From positions 375,028 through 439,027 of the forward strand of contig CAMXCT020003646.1 in NCBI GenBank assembly GCA_947184155.2: DNA of 64,000 nt, given 5' to 3'. The stretch is from Cladocopium goreaui. Its lineage: Eukaryota > Sar > Dinophyceae > Suessiales > Symbiodiniaceae. Below are positions 48,514 through 60,175 of this stretch, in pieces. The translations under genes were made by a program, and so were the position numbers. The notes beneath the pieces were generated by a model that was not told the origin of the DNA, made no database searches, and saw only the letters and a list, made by a program, of their open reading frames with translations. Numbering within the stretch: position 1 is the first letter of the stretch; the number at the start of each line of letters is the position of its first letter.

Positions 48514-48679
48514 CTGCCAAATCTAAATCACAAATATATACATATCAAATAAAATTACATAGTTGTATTAGTTATATTTAAATATGTGTGTGCGCGTGTG
48601 CGTGTCATATGAATATATATATATATACATATATATATAGGATTATATGTGTGTGTGTGTATATGCGTATACATATATA

Positions 48680-49124
48680 TGATTGCGCTGTTCCTCACTC
48701 GCCTCACTCCTTTTGGCCAGACTGCGCGTTGCACTCAGCTTGTTTGAGAAAAGTTCTGCTGAACACTTGGAGTACATCCATTGCTTTGGATGGTAAACGG
48801 AAATTGCAGCAGTAACCACATCCCAACTTCAAAATGTCATCCCTTTAGGAGGTGGCTGGGGTGGTTGGAGGCCACTAGTTAGAACCCTTGAATATAAAGA
48901 CGGCCAACATGGATGCTCAATCGATAGACACTTCATCAAAGACCTGCAGAGCAGTGGGTATGATTGCGCTGTTCCTCACTCGCCTCACTCCTTTTGGCCA
49001 GACTGTGCGTTGCACTCAGCTTGTTTGAGAAAAGTTCTGCTGAACACTTGGAGTACATCCATTGCTTTGGATGGTAAACGGAAATTGCAGCAGTAACCAC
49101 ATCCCAACTTCAAAATGTCATCCC
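48680..49124 (-). repeat. split direct repeats B1, A2 and B2
   Basis: B1 (48961-49124) and B2 (48680-48843) are 164 bp each and differ by one base seen (ACTGTGCG versus ACTGCGCG). A2 (48872-48961) lies between them and abuts B1 directly (GTGGGTATGATTGCG). This junction is what an A-B joined circle would contain. Confidence 0.92.
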
Positions 49125-49131
49125 AAATCCC

Positions 49132-52100
49132 TTATCCTTTAAGGACCTGGGCCACCAAAGCTGCTATCTTGTCGGTCAGCTCGGTGGGGTAGGGCTGAGC
49201 GCGAAGGGTCCAAAAGACCCCTTTTTCGTCTCGTCCTGCCAGCCGCAAGTGTGGCCGTTTGGAACGTGAACAGTTGCTGTGAAAGGGTTGGCACTGTAAA
49301 GCAACAGAAGACAAATCCAAGTAGTTGAACAGCAACTGTGTGGGTTTACGCCATGGTTCGCCAAATTGACAATAGTCCAAATGAATAATGTGTGGTGAAT
49401 ATGTGCGTAAAAATCGCTGAATAGGAGGCATCAGCCATGCCACGCTCGACAATGGGTTCTCCAAGACATATGGTATTCGATACTTCTCACAGAGTCGCAG
49501 CAAACGAATAGTGAAATATAGCAGAGCATTACCAGTATCCACTTTGTTTTTGTCTGCAAAGGAAAGGTCAGGAAGGCCCCAAAGGTAGTCATCTGTACGA
49601 ATTGGACCTGGGCCTCTGCCATCCCACTTCCGTGCTCGTGAGAAAGAGGTGCAAGGCATACCACACCACACAAAAGACACTCTTCCAGTACGAACCAAAT
49701 TGAATAAACGATGTTCCAGTTTACTGTCCAAAACATTATGGAAAGGAGAAATGCATATATCAACAGGAAAAGCTTGTATGCCACGTTGCTGCAAGGATTT
49801 TGTGATACGTGCTGTACCCGCGAAAACTTCCAAACCAAAGCTATGAGGAAGACATGTACTTGTAGCTACATCTTGCGTTTCACCGCCACTCCGAAGCTTC
49901 GTGCTTGAACTTCTCCCTTGAAAGCTTTCTCCATGTTCCTTACTGACCATTGACAAAATGCCAAACCTCCTGGTAACAACTGGTTCATGAGCTGTTGAAT
50001 CTTGCCCACCTTCGTGTATCTGCGGACGCTGGCATCTGTTTGCCAACGCCCTCGGGCTTTGACTCCTTGGTAACTTCGTGTCCCTGCATTTAGATCCTCG
50101 GCTGCACCTCCGTGACGGAGTTGGTATGGATGGAGGTTGGGCACTCCCATCATGCTGGCTACTGTCACAAACTCCTTCCGATACTCCTCTGCACTGAAGT
50201 CGAACAGTCTTGAGTCCTTGCTCTTCCTCAACTTGGCCATCTGATGAAGCAGGGGACCCAACCATTTGCGATCCTTGGAGTCCAGGGGGATGCTGTTGTC
50301 GAAGATGCCCACTTTGTCGGGTCGCAGCTCGTCGAAAGGTCTTACCACTATGGCATACCATTGATACTGTTTCCCCCCTCCTTTGATCGGAGGGACTAGG
50401 CTCTTCACCGTCAGGTCTATCCCTTCCCCAGGCCTCATGTAGGTGTCGAAGTCCATGATCATCTTCAAAGCCTTCGTGCGATGGCCCCGATGCAGCATAG
50501 TCATCGCCATGCCAAACACCAAGACCATGGGGACTGGAATTCTGCTCTCGGGTGGAACCTCTTTTCTCCACCCCCTCAGTGCTTTCCGAGATCTCACCAT
50601 CTTCCCTTTCAAGGTGCAGTGATGATATTCTATGCTTGCAAGGATCTTTTCTCCCTCGTTCATGCCCTTTCCTTCTAGGTACAACTGATCCATAAATTCG
50701 GCCAAGTGGTCGTCTGTGGATTCGTTTGGAGGAAGCGGCAAACCTTCCGCCCTGCAGAAATTCTGAAACTTCTGGTAAGTAGCCCTTGACACTGAGCATC
50801 TCTCGAGGGTGGTCAGTCGACTCTGCTTGGCCAACGCTTCCGCCTCCAAGGACACTGCTCTTGCTTTCGCCATCACCCTCAAGGGTTTGTGAGCCTGACT
50901 GGCTCGAGTTTGCTCCCCCTTCACCTGAAGATTCTTTTGCTTCTGCTTGGTACTCTTCTGAATCACCTTGATCACACCTGGCGCCTTCAACACTCTCCCA
51001 GCTTTCGTCACCTTCTGCGTAGTTGCCAATCTCACCATCGGCTTGGGTTTGGACTGAACGCTTGGAGTATGCACATGGGGTTTGGTAAGCACCCGCTGCG
51101 ATCTGACCGCGGGACGGCCCATCTGCCACATTCCTCTCAGATGGAACCCATCTCACTCGAACAGAGAAGCCAGCGGCCAAACAAAGTGCTGAAAGTTGTT
51201 GCATACATCTCAACATCTTGAAGTTGCATGCTCGCCCTTTGTTTACCGCCATGCACAATGCGAAACTATCCAATAAAACCAGATGTCGTTGTCCCCTGGA
51301 TGAAGAACTCCTAGTCAACCTCTTAATAGCCAAAACTAAAGCTCTTCCCTCTTTCACTGTAATATGCTCACCAGTGTTAGACCAACGACCCATAAGTTTT
51401 GTTTGCCAAGCTGAAGGTTCGGTTACATCTAAAGGTACCTCTGGGAAATAGTTGTTGTAACTGTACATATCCTTAATATCACCCTCACTCTTTGAAGCCC
51501 TAGCAGTCCGCGGGTCTCCCACCACATCCAGTCCTTGGGCTCTCTCACGTGGTCGCCAAAGGCTGGGCTCAAGGTGCTTGAACCTCCAACGGTCCTGCCA
51601 GGATCCAAGCTCATGCACTCGGTCTTTCTCCAAGTGCCGTTGGCATACTCCATATCCTTCTGGACTAGAATCTGAGCATGATATAGTAGTACTCCATGGC
51701 CTTTTCATCTCTCCTACAAGCAATGGTACCAATCCAATAAAAGTGAGAACTTCTTGACGTTCCTTCTTGTTCAGAGGCCGTGGTATGGGAGCAGCTTCCA
51801 CATAGTCGTACAAGCTACGAAAAATGCACATGCCATATCGATTGATTGTACAAATAGTCATAGCGTGTCCTAAAAGACGTTGCAACACTACCCAATCCAC
51901 TGGTCCCTCCAAAAGGCTCTCGAAAGCAAGAATCACATTCCAAGCCCTGCTTGGAGTTGGCTTGACCTTGCCATTTTTGCCATCAATGATCCCACCAAGT
52001 GTGGGGAAAAAGGAACTAGCTTCTGCATCCTCATGCAAAGTAAAACCCAAACCAGTGAGATCCTCACACATGCGATCCTTTCCCCTCTGACAGCTCTCCT

Positions 52101-53352
52101 GATCAAGCGACATGCAATGCACGTTGTCACAATACGGCATCGCAGCAACCTGGCTTCCGAACAGCTTGGGTGAGGGGTATCCATCTAAAATCAATTGACT
52201 TCGATCACATTGGAGGGCTCGCAGTGCTGATTGTTCGTGCATCTTCTGGATGAGATAGAAGCTCCAAGAAAACCCCATAGGCAACACAGTAATACAAGGT
52301 GATATACGTCCAAACTCATTGCAAGTAAATTCATCACCAAAAATACTATGTGCTTCACTTGAAGTAATATCCGAGAGAAGGCAGAAAAAATTGGAGAACT
52401 CCGATGAAATCCTAGCAGCATAGAAGCAATCCTGTATATCTGACCCACTAACGAACAAAGTTTGATCCTTCTCCAACACCATCTCAGAAACCGCAGCTAA
52501 AGAACCAAGCTCGCAGTGTGGTGGCTCTTTGAATTGCAAGTTCACCTGCCTACAATCCAATATGAGTCGTTGTCTAGGACAAAGAGTATCACCAACAAGC
52601 TTGGGTTTCTTTGACACACTAAAAGCGCCAACTCGTCCCCTGCAGACTGAGGTAGTGCCAAGGATACCACATGAGTTCAAGTGTTTGAGAAAGGCAATGT
52701 AGGTAGGACGATGGGCAAGAGAGGGATCATTGTAAGGTTTTATTTTGTAAGCATCATCACAAATAGAGCTCCATGTGCTTGCGTCTTGTAACATCCAATG
52801 TTCAAAGTCATGTACCATCATCTCTAGCGGCCCCTCTAAGGATCCATCCAAATTGACACCCGCTACCGACCCCCTAGGTAAAGAGAGTTGGCTAAGCTGC
52901 ATGTCTACCACATCTCCAACTCCAACTTCAGGCTCACAATACCCTCCGCTGGATGCCCTGAGCGCCTGAAGGGCTCTTGAGCGGCTTGCTGCAGGAGGCG
53001 GAGCACCAAAGGCAGAGACACTTTCGACTATGCTTCTGATACACTCACGTTGACCTTGGGGAAGTGAAGATATGTTTGCAACCTCACCGCCACAAGGACC
53101 ACTCCTACCAAAGTAAAGTGAATTCATTGCACCGATGGCCATGTTCACACGCTCTCTGATGTGCTCACGACGATGCAATCTCTGTCGCACAGAAGAACAC
53201 GCTTGCCCAGCAATGTCCCCAGCCCCTTTGAGGGTGGGGAGAGGAAAGAGACTTCTTTGCCTCCCATCCTCACAGACCGGCTCATGAAAAATTCTGCTGC
53301 GCCACTTGCGAACCATCGCACAAAACTGAAGCCAGCTGTATGCACAAGGCAA
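49132..53352 (-). CDS. RT / RNase H / C5-cytosine methyltransferase polyprotein
   Basis: A single ORF of 1,406 codons. The first apparent start (ATG-like CCATGCGC context) needs checking; RT-like blocks begin at about residue 200: RLILDCRQVN, SDIQDCFYA, LPMGFSWSFY, and the catalytic box PYCDNVHC (about 430), where the usual second Asp of YxDD is Asn. RNase H-like residues follow (LLDSFALCMAVNKG ... VPSERNVADGPSR, about 670-740). Residues about 741-1162 are low-complexity Ser/Gly/Glu/Arg and are overprinted by the recombinase ORF. Residues about 1172-1406 form a C5-methyltransferase: motif I GLEVFAGTA, motif IV WCGMPCTSFS, motif VI ENP, motif VIII QFGEPWRKPTQL. It would methylate cytosine, perhaps on the element's own DNA. 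Confidence 0.88.
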   Translation of the reverse strand: MPCAYSWLQFCAMVRKWRSRIFHEPVCEDGRQRSLFPLPTLKGAGDIAGQACSSVRQRLHRREHIRERVNMAIGAMNSLYFGRSGPCGGEVANISSLPQGQRECIRSIVESVSAFGAPPPAASRSRALQALRASSGGYCEPEVGVGDVVDMQLSQLSLPRGSVAGVNLDGSLEGPLEMMVHDFEHWMLQDASTWSSICDDAYKIKPYNDPSLAHRPTYIAFLKHLNSCGILGTTSVCRGRVGAFSVSKKPKLVGDTLCPRQRLILDCRQVNLQFKEPPHCELGSLAAVSEMVLEKDQTLFVSGSDIQDCFYAARISSEFSNFFCLLSDITSSEAHSIFGDEFTCNEFGRISPCITVLPMGFSWSFYLIQKMHEQSALRALQCDRSQLILDGYPSPKLFGSQVAAMPYCDNVHCMSLDQESCQRGKDRMCEDLTGLGFTLHEDAEASSFFPTLGGIIDGKNGKVKPTPSRAWNVILAFESLLEGPVDWVVLQRLLGHAMTICTINRYGMCIFRSLYDYVEAAPIPRPLNKKERQEVLTFIGLVPLLVGEMKRPWSTTISCSDSSPEGYGVCQRHLEKDRVHELGSWQDRWRFKHLEPSLWRPRERAQGLDVVGDPRTARASKSEGDIKDMYSYNNYFPEVPLDVTEPSAWQTKLMGRWSNTGEHITVKEGRALVLAIKRLTRSSSSRGQRHLVLLDSFALCMAVNKGRACNFKMLRCMQQLSALCLAAGFSVRVRWVPSERNVADGPSRGQIAAGAYQTPCAYSKRSVQTQADGEIGNYAEGDESWESVEGARCDQGDSEEYQAEAKESSGEGGANSSQSGSQTLEGDGESKSSVLGGGSVGQAESTDHPREMLSVKGYLPEVSEFLQGGRFAASSKRIHRRPLGRIYGSVVPRRKGHERGRKDPCKHRISSLHLEREDGEISESTEGVEKRGSTREQNSSPHGLGVWHGDDYAASGPSHEGFEDDHGLRHLHEAWGRDRPDGEEPSPSDQRRGETVSMVCHSGKTFRRAATRQSGHLRQQHPPGLQGSQMVGSPASSDGQVEEEQGLKTVRLQCRGVSEGVCDSSQHDGSAQPPSIPTPSRRCSRGSKCRDTKLPRSQSPRALANRCQRPQIHEGGQDSTAHEPVVTRRFGILSMVSKEHGESFQGRSSSTKLRSGGETQDVATSTCLPHSFGLEVFAGTARITKSLQQRGIQAFPVDICISPFHNVLDSKLEHRLFNLVRTGRVSFVWCGMPCTSFSRARKWDGRGPGPIRTDDYLWGLPDLSFADKNKVDTGNALLYFTIRLLRLCEKYRIPYVLENPLSSVAWLMPPIQRFLRTYSPHIIHLDYCQFGEPWRKPTQLLFNYLDLSSVALQCQPFHSNCSRSKRPHLRLAGRDEKGVFWTLRAQPYPTELTDKIAALVAQVLKG
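49866..51131 (-). CDS. overlapping tyrosine recombinase
   Basis: 421 codons in a different minus-strand frame, wholly inside the RT/methyltransferase ORF. The N-terminal part is Lys/Arg/Gln-rich and Pro-containing; a core-binding-like region follows. Catalytic landmarks are an Arg in TYMRPGEG (about 231), YQLRHGG (the HxxR-type box, about 345), a Trp in RGRW and the nucleophile Tyr in RRYTK (about 371). It would integrate a circular DNA copy by strand exchange, explaining the lack of target duplication. Expression must use frameshifting, reinitiation or a separate transcript; none is evident from sequence. Confidence 0.88.
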   Translation of the reverse strand: MWQMGRPAVRSQRVLTKPHVHTPSVQSKPKPMVRLATTQKVTKAGRVLKAPGVIKVIQKSTKQKQKNLQVKGEQTRASQAHKPLRVMAKARAVSLEAEALAKQSRLTTLERCSVSRATYQKFQNFCRAEGLPLPPNESTDDHLAEFMDQLYLEGKGMNEGEKILASIEYHHCTLKGKMVRSRKALRGWRKEVPPESRIPVPMVLVFGMAMTMLHRGHRTKALKMIMDFDTYMRPGEGIDLTVKSLVPPIKGGGKQYQWYAIVVRPFDELRPDKVGIFDNSIPLDSKDRKWLGPLLHQMAKLRKSKDSRLFDFSAEEYRKEFVTVASMMGVPNLHPYQLRHGGAAEDLNAGTRSYQGVKARGRWQTDASVRRYTKVGKIQQLMNQLLPGGLAFCQWSVRNMEKAFKGEVQARSFGVAVKRKM

Positions 53353-53377
53353 TCAACAAAGGGGACCCCCAGTTGGC

Positions 53378-54562
53378 CTACTTGGCCTGGCCCCCTCCGC
53401 CTTTTGGCTCGGCTTTCGGGGGCTGAAAAGGCTTGCCACCACGACCCTTTCCTTTGTATTCACCTTGCTTGCGGCGCTCTTTCATGATCATGCTTTCTTG
53501 ATGCATTCGATCAGCAACGTGTTTGACCAACTCGGGCACGACAATCGCTCCACCAGGTCGGTGAGTGGTCCCCATATAGTGGTCGGAACCTTCATACGAT
53601 GGAGCACTGGGGTTATACGAATGTGCATCTGCCAACAGCTGTCGCCTTCGAACAAGGAGCTCAAATGATGCTAGATTGCAGATGTTGAGAGAATCATATC
53701 CCACAGCTAAGTCGATTGCTCGAGCCAACACTTCATCCTCGTGGATAGCACGATCACCATCCGGAATTTTGGATTGCTGCACCCAAGCAAGGTGCTGTCC
53801 GAAGGCTGATTCAGACACACTGCATACTGCCTTAAGGTAAGGCAGTGTGGTGCGTGGTTCCAGTGGGAAGTCCTCGAATTCCACCTGGGCCATCTCAAGC
53901 ACCGTGTCCTTGAACTGCCTGGATCTGCTTCCATTCACTCCGAACTTCACTTCCAGAGTGCGAACATCATCACATGCACTGATGTCTTCTCCTTCAAGTG
54001 CTTCACTTTTTCTAGCCAACTCAATCCTTTTCTCACAAAAGCTGCCAATGCTGTCAACTGGGGTCTGGTAGATCAAAGTGGGACGGGCGTTCCCTTCACC
54101 ATCTTCTATCTGAGCTAGCCCATACGAACCATCTTGAAGAAAACCTGCTGGAGGTACTATCTGCTCTCCAATGCGTTTACCCGGTAGCCACTCCGCCAGA
54201 ACCCAAACGACCTGGTTTGGTGCAGGGGCAGCCGCAACTGCCAAGCCAAGTCTCAATCGCTCAGCTTCGACCGCTCTCCTGCCAGCAGTGAGAATGGCAT
54301 TGAGCTGAGCAACCGTAAGTGGGGCAAAACCATAAACTTCTCCTGGAACAACCCCATGCGGCAATGAGCCATCATCCGGCCCGATGTGGAATCCCACCAA
54401 TTCTGGGTTTGATCCATCCAGTGTCTCAATGTATTCGTCTCCATCGGGGGTACGAATCAAGTGGTCAAACCCTTGAATGTGCCCCAAAACCAGACGGGTG
54501 TGAACGCAAGGAGGAGCCTCCCCATAATTGAGGTAACACAACTGCCCTGCTTGCAGAGCCAT
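53378..54562 (-). CDS. Gag-like ORF
   Basis: About 394 residues from the ATG at 54562 (MALQAGQLCYLNYGE) to a TAA-type stop at 53378. The C-terminus is basic and Gly/Lys-rich (KGKGRGGKPFQPPKAEPKGG), suitable for nucleic-acid binding, and the centre is helical. There is no zinc knuckle. Position before the RT ORF and the basic tail support a Gag role; the sequence is not otherwise recognised. Confidence 0.7.
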   Translation of the reverse strand: MALQAGQLCYLNYGEAPPCVHTRLVLGHIQGFDHLIRTPDGDEYIETLDGSNPELVGFHIGPDDGSLPHGVVPGEVYGFAPLTVAQLNAILTAGRRAVEAERLRLGLAVAAAPAPNQVVWVLAEWLPGKRIGEQIVPPAGFLQDGSYGLAQIEDGEGNARPTLIYQTPVDSIGSFCEKRIELARKSEALEGEDISACDDVRTLEVKFGVNGSRSRQFKDTVLEMAQVEFEDFPLEPRTTLPYLKAVCSVSESAFGQHLAWVQQSKIPDGDRAIHEDEVLARAIDLAVGYDSLNICNLASFELLVRRRQLLADAHSYNPSAPSYEGSDHYMGTTHRPGGAIVVPELVKHVADRMHQESMIMKERRKQGEYKGKGRGGKPFQPPKAEPKGGGGQAK

Positions 54563-54570
54563 GCCCACTA

Positions 54571-54918
54571 GCCAGTGATGGCCAACCCACGGGCTGCTCC
54601 GTGGACTCCTTGGCCCTTACTTTTGCCCTTGATGTTCACCTGAAATTCTCTAGCGGTCCCCGATGAACTTTCCCGTAAAGTAACCTTGCAAACCAAAGCC
54701 ACGTTACTCAGAACCACCACCGTAACCACCGCAATTGCCAGAAGGATCCCCCACAAAGAGCTGCTCTGGCCAGAAACGTTGTGCTCCACGATGGGGGCAC
54801 CACTCCACTGGCACTGGCAGTGACAAGCTGGAGGATCTACCTTAGCCTCACTCTGGCCTCGAAGCCAGAAACCAGCTGAAAAGCCAACCAGCCCTGCAAT
54901 GGCGTGCCACTGGTCCAT
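54571..54918 (-). CDS. small transmembrane ORF of the retrotransposon
   Basis: 116 residues from ATG (MDQWHAIAGLVGFSAGFW) to a TAG at 54570-54568. It has a short N-terminal hydrophobic stretch, a Cys/His patch (PPACHCQCQW), and a strong membrane segment LWGILLAIAVVTVVVLSNVA, then a basic/Gly tail. It begins 13 bp inside repeat A1, and the next ORF starts 6 bp after its stop, so the two are likely translated from one RNA. No family is recognised; a membrane-located product upstream of Gag is unusual for this order. Confidence 0.65.
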
Positions 54919-54930
54919 AGCACGGGAATC

Positions 54931-55020
54931 CCACTAGTTAGAACCCTTGAATATAAAGACGGCCAACATGGATGCTCAATCGATAGACACTTCATCAAAG
55001 ACCTGCAGAGCAGTGGGTAT
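54931..55020 (-). repeat. split direct repeat A1
   Basis: 90-bp terminal repeat (plus-strand CCACTAGTTAGAACCC ... GCAGTGGGTA) nearly identical to A2 at 48872-48961. It is the 5' end of the element. Confidence 0.92.
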
Positions 55021-56640: not shown

Positions 56641-57409
56641 GTCAGCCACGGGCAAAACTTTGCCCTGAAAACTGCCGCCAAGAAAATTGGTTCTCCCCTA
56701 CTCAAGTAAACGTTTCGCGGACTTATTGCATCTTGGGATATCTCAAAAACTCCCCCCCCAAAAGAAATGGCCAAGTCACCACTCGGAATGCCACCAGCTT
56801 CAGTCCAGGTGTCCAGCAAACCGAACCAAGTACCGGTCTTCTCCCACTTCCAGCCCCAAAGGAAAGCGAAAAAACCAACGCAGCGGTCCTGGGCGCCATG
56901 GCATGACGGGCTGTAGCTGCCAGCGGTTGCAGCTTGGTAATCTACCAATGGAATAATGTAAATCTAAAACAAATTGGAAGCTCGGGCCCGTCATTGCCAA
57001 TAGACGTAGTAAACCAAATCATGAATGATCCTCAATATCACCAGAAATGTTTGGGTTAATAATACCATCCCCAAATGGGTATTGTTTATAACTAGGTTTT
57101 CCCACTTTTTGTTTATGACTGAGTTTACCACATGAAAATCCGCAAATCTTGAACCCAGCGACATCCAGCTTGCATCTGTGAAGGCCATTGAAGATGAACT
57201 GCCCCTTGCGGGTGGAAGTCCTAAAGTTAAGCCCGGATGCCGAGGCAGCCGATGTTCCATTCCACAATGGAAATATATGAAATAAGCTTCGGTGGTATCC
57301 CCAACAGCCGCAACGTTGAATTTTTACAAATCTTTCTGAAGCGTGCTGCGAAGCCAAGCGCTGGAAACACCTCAGCTGGGTTTCCGTCAATTAAATTGCC
57401 GCAAATCCT

Positions 57410-58850
57410 GTTGAACCTGACCTCGCTCTGCACCAAAGCCTCCCACACCTTCTCCGGAACCTTCTCCGGAACCTTCTCCCGAACCCTGTTGACCCTGACC
57501 GCTGCACCAAAGCCTCCAGGAACCATTTCCGGAACCTTCTCCGGAACCTGATCCAGAACCCTGTTGAACTTGACCTGGCTCTGCACTAAAGCCTCCCAGA
57601 CCTTCTCCGGAACCTTCTCCGGAATCTGTTGCACATGCCCTGGCTCTGCACCAAAGCCTCCTGGAACTTTCTCCGGAACCCTGTTCAACCTGACCTGGCT
57701 CTGCACCAAAGCTTCTCAAACCTTCTCCGGAAACTTGTTAAGAATCCTGTCCAAAGCCTCCCGGAACCTTCTCCGGAACCTTCTTCGGAACCCTGTTGAA
57801 CCTGACCTGGCTTTGCACCAAAGCCTCCCGCACCGGAACCTTCTCCCGAACCTTCTCCGGAACCCTGTTGAACCTGGCCTGGCTCTGCACCAAAGCCTCC
57901 CACGCCTTCTCCGGAACCTTCTCCGGAACCTTCTCCGGAACCTTCTCCCGATGACCTGGCGCTGCACCAAAGCCTCCAGGAACCTTTTCCGGAACCTGAC
58001 CTGGCTCTGCACCAAAGCCTCCCAGACCTTCTCCGGAACCTTCTCCGGAACCTTCTCCCGAACCCTGTTGACCCTGACCGCTGCACCAAAGCCTCCAGGA
58101 ACCATTTCCGGAACCTTCTCCGGAACCTGATCCAGAACCCTGTTGAACTTGACCTGGCTCTGCACTAAAGCCTCCCAGACCTTCTCCGGAACCTTCTCCG
58201 GAATCTGTTGAACATGCCCTGGCTCTGCACCAAAGCCTCCTGGAACTTTCTCCGGAACCCTGTTCAACCTGACCTGGCTCTGCACCAAAGCTTCTCAAAC
58301 CTTCTCCGGAAACTTGTTAAGAATCCTGTCCAAAGCCTCCCGGAACCTTCTCCGGAACCTTCTTCGGAACCCTGTTGAACCTGACCTGGCTTTGCACCAA
58401 AGCCTCCCGCGCCGGAACCTTCTCCCGAACCTTCTCCGGAACCCTGTTGAACCTGGCCTGGCTCTGCACCAAAGCCTCCCACGCCTTCTCCGGAACCTTC
58501 TCCGGAACCTTCTCCCGATGACCTGGCGCTGCACCAAAGCCTCCAGGAACCTTTTCCGGAACCTGACCTGGCTCTGCACCAAAGCCTCCCAGACCTTCTC
58601 CAGAACCCTGTTGAACTTGACCTGGCTCTGCACTAAAGCCTCCCAGACCTTCTCCGGAACCTTCTCCGGAACCATATTTTAAACCTGACCTGGCTCTGCC
58701 CCAAAGCCCCCAAACCTTCGCCGGAACCTTCTTTGGAACCTCGTTGAAACTGACCCGGCGCCTGCACCAAAGCCTCCCAGACCTTCTCCGGAACCTTCGG
58801 AACCTTCTCCGGAACCTCGTTGAACCTGACCCGGCGCCTGCACCAGTGCA
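57410..58850. repeat. TTCTCCGGAACC minisatellite with 579-bp duplication
   Basis: Built from the 12-bp unit TTCTCCGGAACC and a longer spacer containing CTGGCTCTGCACCAAAGCC. A 579-bp higher-order unit is duplicated: the marker at 57481 recurs at 58060. Frames on both strands are open over hundreds of codons, so coding potential cannot be judged from openness. Confidence 0.9.
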
Positions 58851-59690
58851 CACCGGAGCTATTCTGGGCTGAAGACCCAATTAGCTTACGCTGTTGGGGA
58901 AATATGTCTGAAAATGCAATCACTCACTGATTGACCACAACCTTTTGGGAGACCCCCAGACAAACCAATGTATTAGCGTACCAAGATGTGGCAAGGTGCA
59001 TTGGTTCCATCAATCCATGCCACGAGGTTTCTGGCACCTGCCACGGTGCTGCAGTTCCACATTCGGTCAAAGCCCAGGCTTTCCACCATCCAGCTCGCTG
59101 CAAGGTTTTGCTGATGCCCCAGTGGTCATTGCCTCCAAGCACTGAAGAAATATATGAAATGCAGTGATCAGTGACACATTTGATGAAAGCCTCGGCCCGT
59201 TCTGAGCTCTGGGCCATACAAATTCATGCCCAAGATGTCGACATCTTTGCAAATTGCTGCAAATCTCGACAGCTTCAACCTCGCTTGGGACAAGAGAGAA
59301 CAGGTGACACATGCCCACGGCACCACATAAATTGGGTGCATATTTTTGGGGTGGAATTCTTTTTGTTTGTTTTCGGTATTTGTTTGTTTTCTCAGTCTGG
59401 GGCACTTTTCCTTGCTATTTGCTACATTTTGGAGCAAAAACCTATACTTTGTTGAATTTTGGGGCTAAAATTTGCCATTTGCACTGTTCATTGATTTTTC
59501 CATGGTTTTACTCGATTTTTCCATGGTGTTCATTGATTTACCCAAAGGGTTCATCGATTTTTCCATAGTTGTCATGGAGTTTTCCATGGTTTCAATGGGT
59601 TTTTCCATGGTTTAAATCATTTTTTTCCATGCATAACATGCACCTGGTGAACATGTAGAATATAGGTTGAAGCACAACTGTGTTGGGTCT
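58851..59690. other. no gene recognised; TTTTTCCATGG motif cluster
   Basis: From about 59490 to 59630 the motif TTTTTCCATGG recurs at least five times. Around 59160-59440 several frames are open but nothing recognisable emerges. Confidence 0.4.
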
Positions 59691-59724
59691 AAATAGTGCC
59701 ATTGGATGCTATCATAGTGTTGGT

Positions 59725-60175
59725 TGGTTTCGGGTTTATTTGGGGTTGGTTTAGGGTCATTTAGGATTGGTTTAGGGTTGGTTTAGGGTTTATTTAGGGC
59801 TGGTTTAGGGTTGGTTTAAGGTTTATTTAGTGTTGGTTTAGGGTTTATTTAGGGTTGGTTCAAGGTTTATTTAAGGTTTATTTAGTGTTGGTTTAGGGTT
59901 ATTTAGGGTTTATTTAGGGTTATTTAGGGTTATTTAGGGTTGGCTTAGATTCATTTAGGGTTGGTTTAGGGGTTATTTAGGGTTGGCTTATGGTTGGTTT
60001 GAGGTCATTTAGGTTTGGTTTAGGGTTTCTCTAGGGTTGGTTCAAGGTTTATTTAAAGTTTATTTAGTGTTGGTTTAGAGTTTATTTAGGGTTATTTAGG
60101 GCTATTTAGGGCTATTTAGGGTTATTTAGGGTTGGTTTAGGGTCTATTTAAAGTCTGTTAAGGGTTGGATTAAGG
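59725..60175. repeat. degenerate telomere-like TTTAGGG array
   Basis: GGTTTAGGGTTTATTTAGGG-type sequence in which TTTAGGG and TTAGGGTT recur dozens of times with ATT, GGT and similar spacers, T/G-rich on the plus strand. It is interstitial, not a clean telomere. Confidence 0.8.

What the first reader, a model, noticed from the sequence alone, without database searches (positions are those of the whole stretch)
48680..55020. YR retrotransposon carrying a C5-cytosine methyltransferase
The long ORF joins RT and RNase H to a C-terminal domain with C5-methyltransferase motifs (EVFAGTA, PCTSFS, ENP, QFGEPWRKPT). Classical DIRS and PAT elements carry an adenine-type (Dam-like) methyltransferase at this position, so a cytosine enzyme in the same place suggests domain replacement. 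Capture of DNMTs by dinoflagellate retroelements has been reported; whether this split-repeat family is among them I cannot tell. A selfish element methylating its own DNA could hide from or exploit host methylation.
Basis: partly seen in the sequence, partly recalled or inferred. Interest (0 to 1): 0.9.

Follow-up and report, generated by a model that had tools for sequence, protein, structure and literature searches.

The report
Retrotransposon with phage-type DNA cytosine methyltransferase
A jumping gene in an algal (dinoflagellate) genome carries a small cytosine-methylating enzyme that resembles those of bacterial viruses and differs from the host-type enzyme already known from related elements, so such elements seem to have taken up DNA methylation from more than one source.

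Summary
Confirmed and refined. Window 48678-55020 (minus strand) is a tyrosine-recombinase (YR) retrotransposon with split direct repeats. Its Pol ORF joins RT and RNase H to a 235-residue C-terminal domain; the YR ORF is nested in Pol's +1 frame. The predicted fold (pLDDT 93.5) and motifs are those of C5-cytosine methyltransferases; no adenine-type Pfam family matched. Dinoflagellate DIRS-like elements with a Dnmt3 domain were published in 2018 (SymbioDIRS-Dnmt3, PMC5890265). The window's domain appears to be another class: a DNMT3A query finds 138 places in the same genome, none overlapping the 150 places that match the window's domain, and four fetched Dnmt3 loci form a 100/100 clade with DNMT3A that excludes it. 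Profiles and trees place the window's domain nearest compact phage C5-methyltransferases. The same domain sits at the N-terminus of Pol in a second element type. Most likely it methylates the element's new DNA before YR integration; activity and substrate are inferred. Caveats: a deeper sister relation to Dnmt3 is not rejected in the largest tree (AU p 0.19), and the published sequences themselves could not be compared.

The parts
48678..55020 (-). whole element, inserted in an AT-rich simple repeat; both ends carry ATA
   Evidence: repeats; ends and flanks
54931..55020 (-). repeat A1 (left end)
   Evidence: 100% identical to A2
54568..54918 (-). ORF of 116 aa with a hydrophobic stretch; function unknown
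   Evidence: overlaps the next ORF by 1 nt
53378..54568 (-). ORF1, 396 aa, gag-like by position
   Evidence: 70% identical to the N-terminus of P0002, 27% over 182 aa to Prorocentrum P0144
49132..53352 (-). Pol ORF, 1406 aa: RT, RNase H, YR-overlapped stretch, methyltransferase
   Evidence: homologs
52114..52575 (-). RT core motifs (LILDCR, DIQDCFY, PMGFSWS, PYCDN)
   Evidence: RVT_1 matches in relatives only
51109..51678 (-). RNase H motifs (D, E, D, D)
   Evidence: motif reading
49866..51131 (-). YR ORF, 421 aa, in the +1 frame of Pol; R, HxLRH, W, Y motifs at 50447-50016
   Evidence: relative P0058 (47% over 319 aa) passes the PF00589 cut-off
49135..49839 (-). compact C5-cytosine methyltransferase domain, 235 aa
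48959..49124 (-). repeat B1
48872..48961 (-). repeat A2, sharing 3 nt with B1 (circle-junction-like ATA)
48678..48843 (-). repeat B2 (right end)

Best explanation
A recent, apparently intact copy of a PAT/DIRS-like YR retrotransposon of a dinoflagellate (probably Symbiodiniaceae). Pol makes cDNA with RT and RNase H; its C-terminal domain is a compact C5-cytosine methyltransferase without the large target-recognition domain, of the phage type rather than Dnmt3. Most likely Pol methylates cytosines of the newly made double-stranded circle before the YR, read from a nested frame, joins it to an ATA in the target. The mark would make new DNA look like the host genome, which is published as mostly CG-methylated in Symbiodinium. 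Shown here: anatomy, fold, motif conservation, selection, class of the enzyme, a second element type with the same domain. Inferred: catalytic activity, DNA as substrate, timing, benefit, phage or virus donor.
For: Fold and motifs. Phage-type: PHROG 757 E 4.4e-8, 15 of 18 relatives at E<=0.01; profile comparison with 76 compact phage enzymes E 2.7e-16 over 191 columns; with 5-row profiles each, compact phage 1.7e-14 over 185 columns against Dnmt3 0.011 over 29. Trees: element domains + compact phage enzymes 99/96, 100/99, 99/95, 99/97; Dnmt3 clade of DNMT3A and four loci of the same genome 100/100 without the window's domain. 0 overlaps between 150 and 138 places. Selection: the domain is as conserved as RT (mean pairwise identity 0.491 against 0.476 in 63 Pol proteins); pN<pS in 321 of 325 pairs; Pol frame open across all 421 YR codons whereas 0 of 5000 synonymous recodings of the YR leave it open. 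Recent: A repeats identical, B 99%.
Against: Sister relation of the compact domain to the five Dnmt3 rows is not rejected in the largest tree (AU p 0.19), though smaller sets gave 0.023, 0.0047, 0.045, 0.017. Branches are long (warning). Canonical C5 enzymes also match (8.1e-8 over 98 columns). 3 of 30 best matches in the genome have altered the PC motif, two of them with open frames of about 1400 aa. CpG observed/expected of the element (0.55) is only slightly below the rest of the window (0.63), and that of the domain is higher (0.70). No activity or expression was shown. The published SymbioDIRS-Dnmt3 sequences were not at hand.
Confidence: 0.7

Rival explanations
1. It is simply the published SymbioDIRS-Dnmt3 family.
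For: Same host group, A-coding-B-A-B repeats, methyltransferase in the Pol ORF, separate YR ORF (PMC5890265). The second element type found here (L136, L137: YR first, domain before RT) resembles the paper's words on shuffled ORF and domain order.
Against: That paper found its domains with PF00145 and places them in the Dnmt3 clade. The window's domain and three S. kawagutii-type proteins with it are not seen by PF00145, while L141 and L142 pass its cut-off (28.4 and 24.4 bits, cut-off 22), have RT-Dnmt3-RNase H, and L144 has Dnmt3-RT-RNase H: two Dnmt3 architectures that fit the description without the window's type.
Confidence: 0.15
2. The domain is an RNA m5C methyltransferase acting on element or tRNA RNA.
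For: The C5 fold includes Dnmt2, which methylates tRNA (recalled and PMC9998398 passages); small size; weak DNMT2 profile hit 4h0n (E 0.22).
Against: Nearest relatives are annotated as phage DNA methylases, one lying between two canonical C5 DNA methylases; yeast assays of other DIRS enzymes in the paper gave DNA methylation.
Confidence: 0.12
3. A non-catalytic or decaying fold kept for binding DNA or for Pol folding.
For: No large target-recognition domain; 3 of 30 best genomic matches with an altered PC motif.
Against: Cys 82 of 83, Glu 78 of 78, Asn 77 of 78; purifying selection.
Confidence: 0.1
4. A Dam-like adenine methyltransferase as in classical DIRS1/PAT.
For: Same place in Pol as in DIRS1 (PMC3266345 passages).
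Against: No adenine family in Pfam at E<=1 for the window domain or 18 relatives; T4 Dam only at rank 44, E 0.05, in Foldseek; motif IV is PC, not DPPY.
Confidence: 0.02

Closest known systems
SymbioDIRS-Dnmt3 (de Mendoza et al. 2018, PMC5890265)
   Same: YR retrotransposon of the same host group, split repeats, C5-type domain in Pol
   Different: Dnmt3 domain seen by PF00145; in the loci fetched here Dnmt3 lies inside or before RT/RNase H (L141-L144), not at the C-terminus; separate clade
DIRS1 and PAT elements
   Same: RT-RNase H-methyltransferase order, YR overlapping Pol, split direct repeats of the PAT type
   Different: their methyltransferase is Dam-like (PMC3266345, PMC5890265 passages)
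Compact phage C5-methyltransferases (PHROG 757; Bacillus phage BM15 gp128)
   Same: about 220 aa, ELFAG, C in motif IV, ENP, YCQYG..KPT, conserved Cys/His near the C-terminus
   Different: free-standing phage genes, about 23-26% identical; form their own clade
SymbioLINE-Dnmt (PMC5890265)
   Same: C5-type enzyme in a dinoflagellate retroelement
   Different: LINE, domain in an upstream ORF, groups with canonical enzymes in the trees here (two ORFs tentatively taken as this kind: L089, L100)

Membership tests
C5-cytosine methyltransferase superfamily | C5-MTase fold | tested here: met
C5-cytosine methyltransferase superfamily | motifs I, IV (PC), VI (EN), VIII, X | tested here: met
   VI is ENP not ENV, VIII is WxKxT, X is by my reading AQPYP
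C5-cytosine methyltransferase superfamily | methylates cytosine C5 | not testable with these tools
   needs an assay
SymbioDIRS-Dnmt3 | A-coding-B-A-B repeats and YR ORF | tested here: met
SymbioDIRS-Dnmt3 | DNMT domain in the Pol ORF with RT | tested here: met
SymbioDIRS-Dnmt3 | DNMT domain belongs to the Dnmt3 clade | tested here: not met
   Dnmt3 clade 100/100 excludes it; a deeper sister relation is not rejected (AU p 0.19)
SymbioDIRS-Dnmt3 | domain found by PF00145 | tested here: not met
   window: no match at E<=1; 4 of 18 relatives at E<=1, best 0.0061
PAT/DIRS YR retrotransposons | split direct repeats with 3-nt junction | tested here: met
   also L140
PAT/DIRS YR retrotransposons | RT-RNase H and YR | tested here: met
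   motifs; profile support only through relatives
PAT/DIRS YR retrotransposons | Dam-like methyltransferase | tested here: not met
Ngaro | no methyltransferase domain | tested here: not met
   domain present
Compact phage C5-MTase (PHROG 757) | full-length profile match | tested here: met
   RT-attached domains form a clade of their own

The most novel reading that the evidence does not exclude
YR retrotransposons of dinoflagellates took a TRD-less cytosine methyltransferase from a phage or large DNA virus, independently of the Dnmt3 capture, spread it through at least two element types with different domain orders, and use it as a phage-style self-mark on their cDNA; in the N-terminal slot of one RT lineage the two enzyme classes stand in for each other (L136/L137 against L144).
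Probability: 0.45. Interest if true: 0.8.

Novelty: new variant of a known kind. Interest (0 to 1): 0.6.

Why it matters
If true, the slot for a DNA methyltransferase in DIRS-like retrotransposons has been filled by three kinds of enzyme: Dam-like, Dnmt3 and a compact phage-type C5 enzyme. Repeated filling by unrelated or distantly related enzymes argues that methylating its own DNA is a real need of these elements, and two classes in one genome make that testable side by side. It also adds a large enzyme source to the unusual, mostly CG-methylated Symbiodinium genome that Pfam-based surveys would overlook.

Tried and rejected
Dam-like reading: no adenine family in Pfam at E<=1. PF00145 and NCBIfam on the window domain: nothing. 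PDB by sequence: nothing convincing. Relatives in IMG/VR by the window domain or its alignment: none confirmed; Inoviridae relative: none. One bacterial-genome hit (L001) is itself an element of this kind, so no bacterial donor was found. A first idea that L136/L137 were the published second architecture was set back by L144, a Dnmt3-RT-RNase H locus. Ka/Ks is limited: synonymous sites are saturated (median pS 0.76), and near-identical pairs have too few changes. No Rfam match and no tRNA in the window.

Rows dropped: 5 of the 80 phage loci (stops or under 180 aa); 4 of 30 genome loci before the pN/pS count; trees used hand-picked subsets of the domains.

Full report
What is there. The element lies on the minus strand, 55020 to 48678. 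Repeat A (90 nt) is at the left end and again at 48872-48961; repeat B (166 nt) is at 48959-49124 and at the right end, 48678-48843. B1 and A2 share 3 nt, ATA, and ATA is found at both ends, within an AT-rich simple repeat. This is the split-direct-repeat plan (A-ORFs-B-A-B) described for PAT elements (PMC3266345, passages) and for SymbioDIRS (PMC5890265, section 6). ORFs: 116 aa, 396 aa, Pol of 1406 aa and a YR of 421 aa. The A copies are identical and the B copies 99% identical, which suggests a recent insertion.

Domains. RT, RNase H and YR are supported by motifs in the window and by Pfam only through relatives: P0058, whose YR part is 47% identical over 319 aa, passes the Phage_integrase cut-off (29.4 bits), and P0141 and L135 pass the RVT_1 cut-off. 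The window proteins themselves match no Pfam family above cut-off. The RT catalytic motif is PYCDN in 112 of 136 collected proteins.

Nested frames. The YR ORF lies inside the Pol ORF in the +1 frame, and the offset is the same in five of five elements checked (window, L135, L139, L140, L001). The Pol frame has no stop over the 421 YR codons; 5000 synonymous recodings of the YR gave a mean of 33.7 stops and never fewer than 16. Between Pol proteins the overlapped stretch is only 22% identical on average, whereas the methyltransferase is 49%, RT 48% and the RT/RNase H part 50% (63 proteins; many were found through the domain or the RT, so the sample is not neutral). The frame therefore seems to be kept open to fuse the methyltransferase to RT and RNase H.

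Which C5 class. PF00145 does not see the window's domain and sees 4 of 18 relatives at E<=1, best 0.0061. PHROG 757, a phage DNA methyltransferase family, matches it at 4.4e-8 and 15 of 18 relatives at E<=0.01. tblastn against phages gave weak matches, best E 2e-3, one to a Bacillus phage BM15 gene annotated as cytosine-C5 methylase. Its relatives in IMG/VR (132 stretches, 80 kept, 75 used) gave a profile that matches the element profile at E 2.7e-16 over 191 columns; Cys, ENP and KPT are invariant in all 76 rows. On equal footing, a 5-row compact phage profile scores 1.7e-14 over 185 columns, a 3-row canonical profile 8.1e-8 over 98, and a 5-row Dnmt3 profile 0.011 over 29.

The genome. The window is part of an unnamed 1.17-Gb assembly. 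The window's domain has 150 scored matches of 5180 candidates, 46 of the 150 in open frames of 1300 aa or more; after the window itself the best is 65% identical. A DNMT3A query has 138 scored matches of 515 candidates, 79 in open frames of 1300 aa or more, and none overlaps or lies within 6 kb of the 150. PF00145 gave 125 matches, none in an open frame above 558 aa, but only 123 of 2685 candidates were scored.

Four element types. T1 is the window's: RT-RNase H-compact domain, nested YR (also L135, L138, L139, L140). T2 (L136, L137): a YR-like ORF, a gag-like ORF, then Pol with compact domain-RT-RNase H (the YR rests on motifs, Pfam shows none). T3 (L141, L142, L143): RT, then Dnmt3, then the rest of RNase H, then YR. 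T4 (L144): gag-like ORF, Dnmt3-RT-RNase H; no YR was identified in the 9.5 kb fetched. The T2 domain is 34% identical to the window's (E 3.7e-38), although their RTs show no BLAST match beyond RNase H. T2 and T4 share related RT-RNase H (25.6% over 450 aa) but carry different enzyme classes at the N-terminus. T3 and T4 fit the two SymbioDIRS-Dnmt3 structures of the paper as its text describes them; I could not compare sequences.

Trees. Element domains plus compact phage enzymes are one side of a branch (99/96; 100/99; 99/95; 99/97). DNMT3A with T3 and T4 is a 100/100 clade without the window's type. AU tests of the compact element domains joined with Dnmt3: p 0.023, 0.0047 (with a long-branch warning), 0.045 with both Dnmt3 rows and 0.017 with L141 alone, and 0.19 with five Dnmt3 rows. 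So it is outside Dnmt3, nearest to the compact phage type in the best trees, but a sister relation is not excluded. Rows were hand-picked.

Selection and decay. In 26 genome copies pN<pS in 321 of 325 pairs; the 21 pairs with dS between 0.01 and 2 have a median ratio of 0.245. Of the 30 best matches, L108 and L128 have lost the Cys, L107 the Pro before it, and two contain a stop.

Mechanism. Inferred from DIRS biology and anatomy: RT and RNase H make DNA, the internal B-A junction templates a circle, the C5 domain held in the same polyprotein methylates it, and YR recombines ATA with a target. In the paper, DNMT domains of SymbioDIRS-Dnmt3 methylated CG de novo in yeast, and the genome is mostly CG-methylated (sections 10 and abstract). 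That assay concerned the other enzyme class as far as can be told here.

Literature. Read of PMC5890265: abstract and outline, sections 6, 7, 10, 11, 14, 15 and passages. Passages only: PMC6338049, PMC3266345, PMC9998398, PMC12344493. Full-text searches of the open-licence PMC library found no report of a non-Dnmt3 C5 domain in DIRS-like elements; subscription journals, preprints, Repbase and supplements were not searched.

Spread. Named relatives are from Symbiodinium sp. CCMP2592, S. necroappetens and 'Skav' models (S. kawagutii, prefix recalled). The Prorocentrum cordatum relatives share RT and gag-like parts, but no compact domain was detected in those gene models. L001, in a contig filed under a Chromatiales MAG and probably misbinned, has the same plan with a 33% identical domain.

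Noticed in passing
52137-52114 and relatives: RT catalytic motif reads PYCDN instead of YxDD; PYCDN in 112 of 136 collected proteins, PYCDD in one.
   Followed up: partly
L136, L137: Second element type with a YR-like ORF first and the compact methyltransferase at the N-terminus of Pol.
   Followed up: partly
L141-L143: Dnmt3 domain appears to sit inside RNase H, between its first and later motifs.
   Followed up: partly
P0041: LINE-type RT protein with a C-terminal compact methyltransferase-like domain, 28% identical, EHP in place of ENP.
   Followed up: partly
L001 (PBZD01000127.1): YR retroelement in a contig filed under a Chromatiales MAG; probably a misbinned eukaryotic contig.
   Followed up: partly
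G000:C1: 7.4-Mb contig with several strong PF00145 matches; may be an associated bacterium in the assembly.
   Followed up: no
49374-49270 (residues C157, C183, C190, H197 of the domain): Conserved Cys/His set, partly shared with the compact phage enzymes; a possible metal site.
   Followed up: no
54568-54918: 116-aa ORF with a hydrophobic stretch overlapping ORF1 by 1 nt; Prorocentrum gene model P0146 has a hydrophobic N-terminus and the gag-like part in one protein.
   Followed up: no
P0058, P0121: Element proteins named AMY1.1 in public Symbiodinium records, probably a naming error.
   Followed up: no
57376-58867 and 59710-59995: Tandem repeat arrays, the second with TTTAGGG-like units.
   Followed up: no
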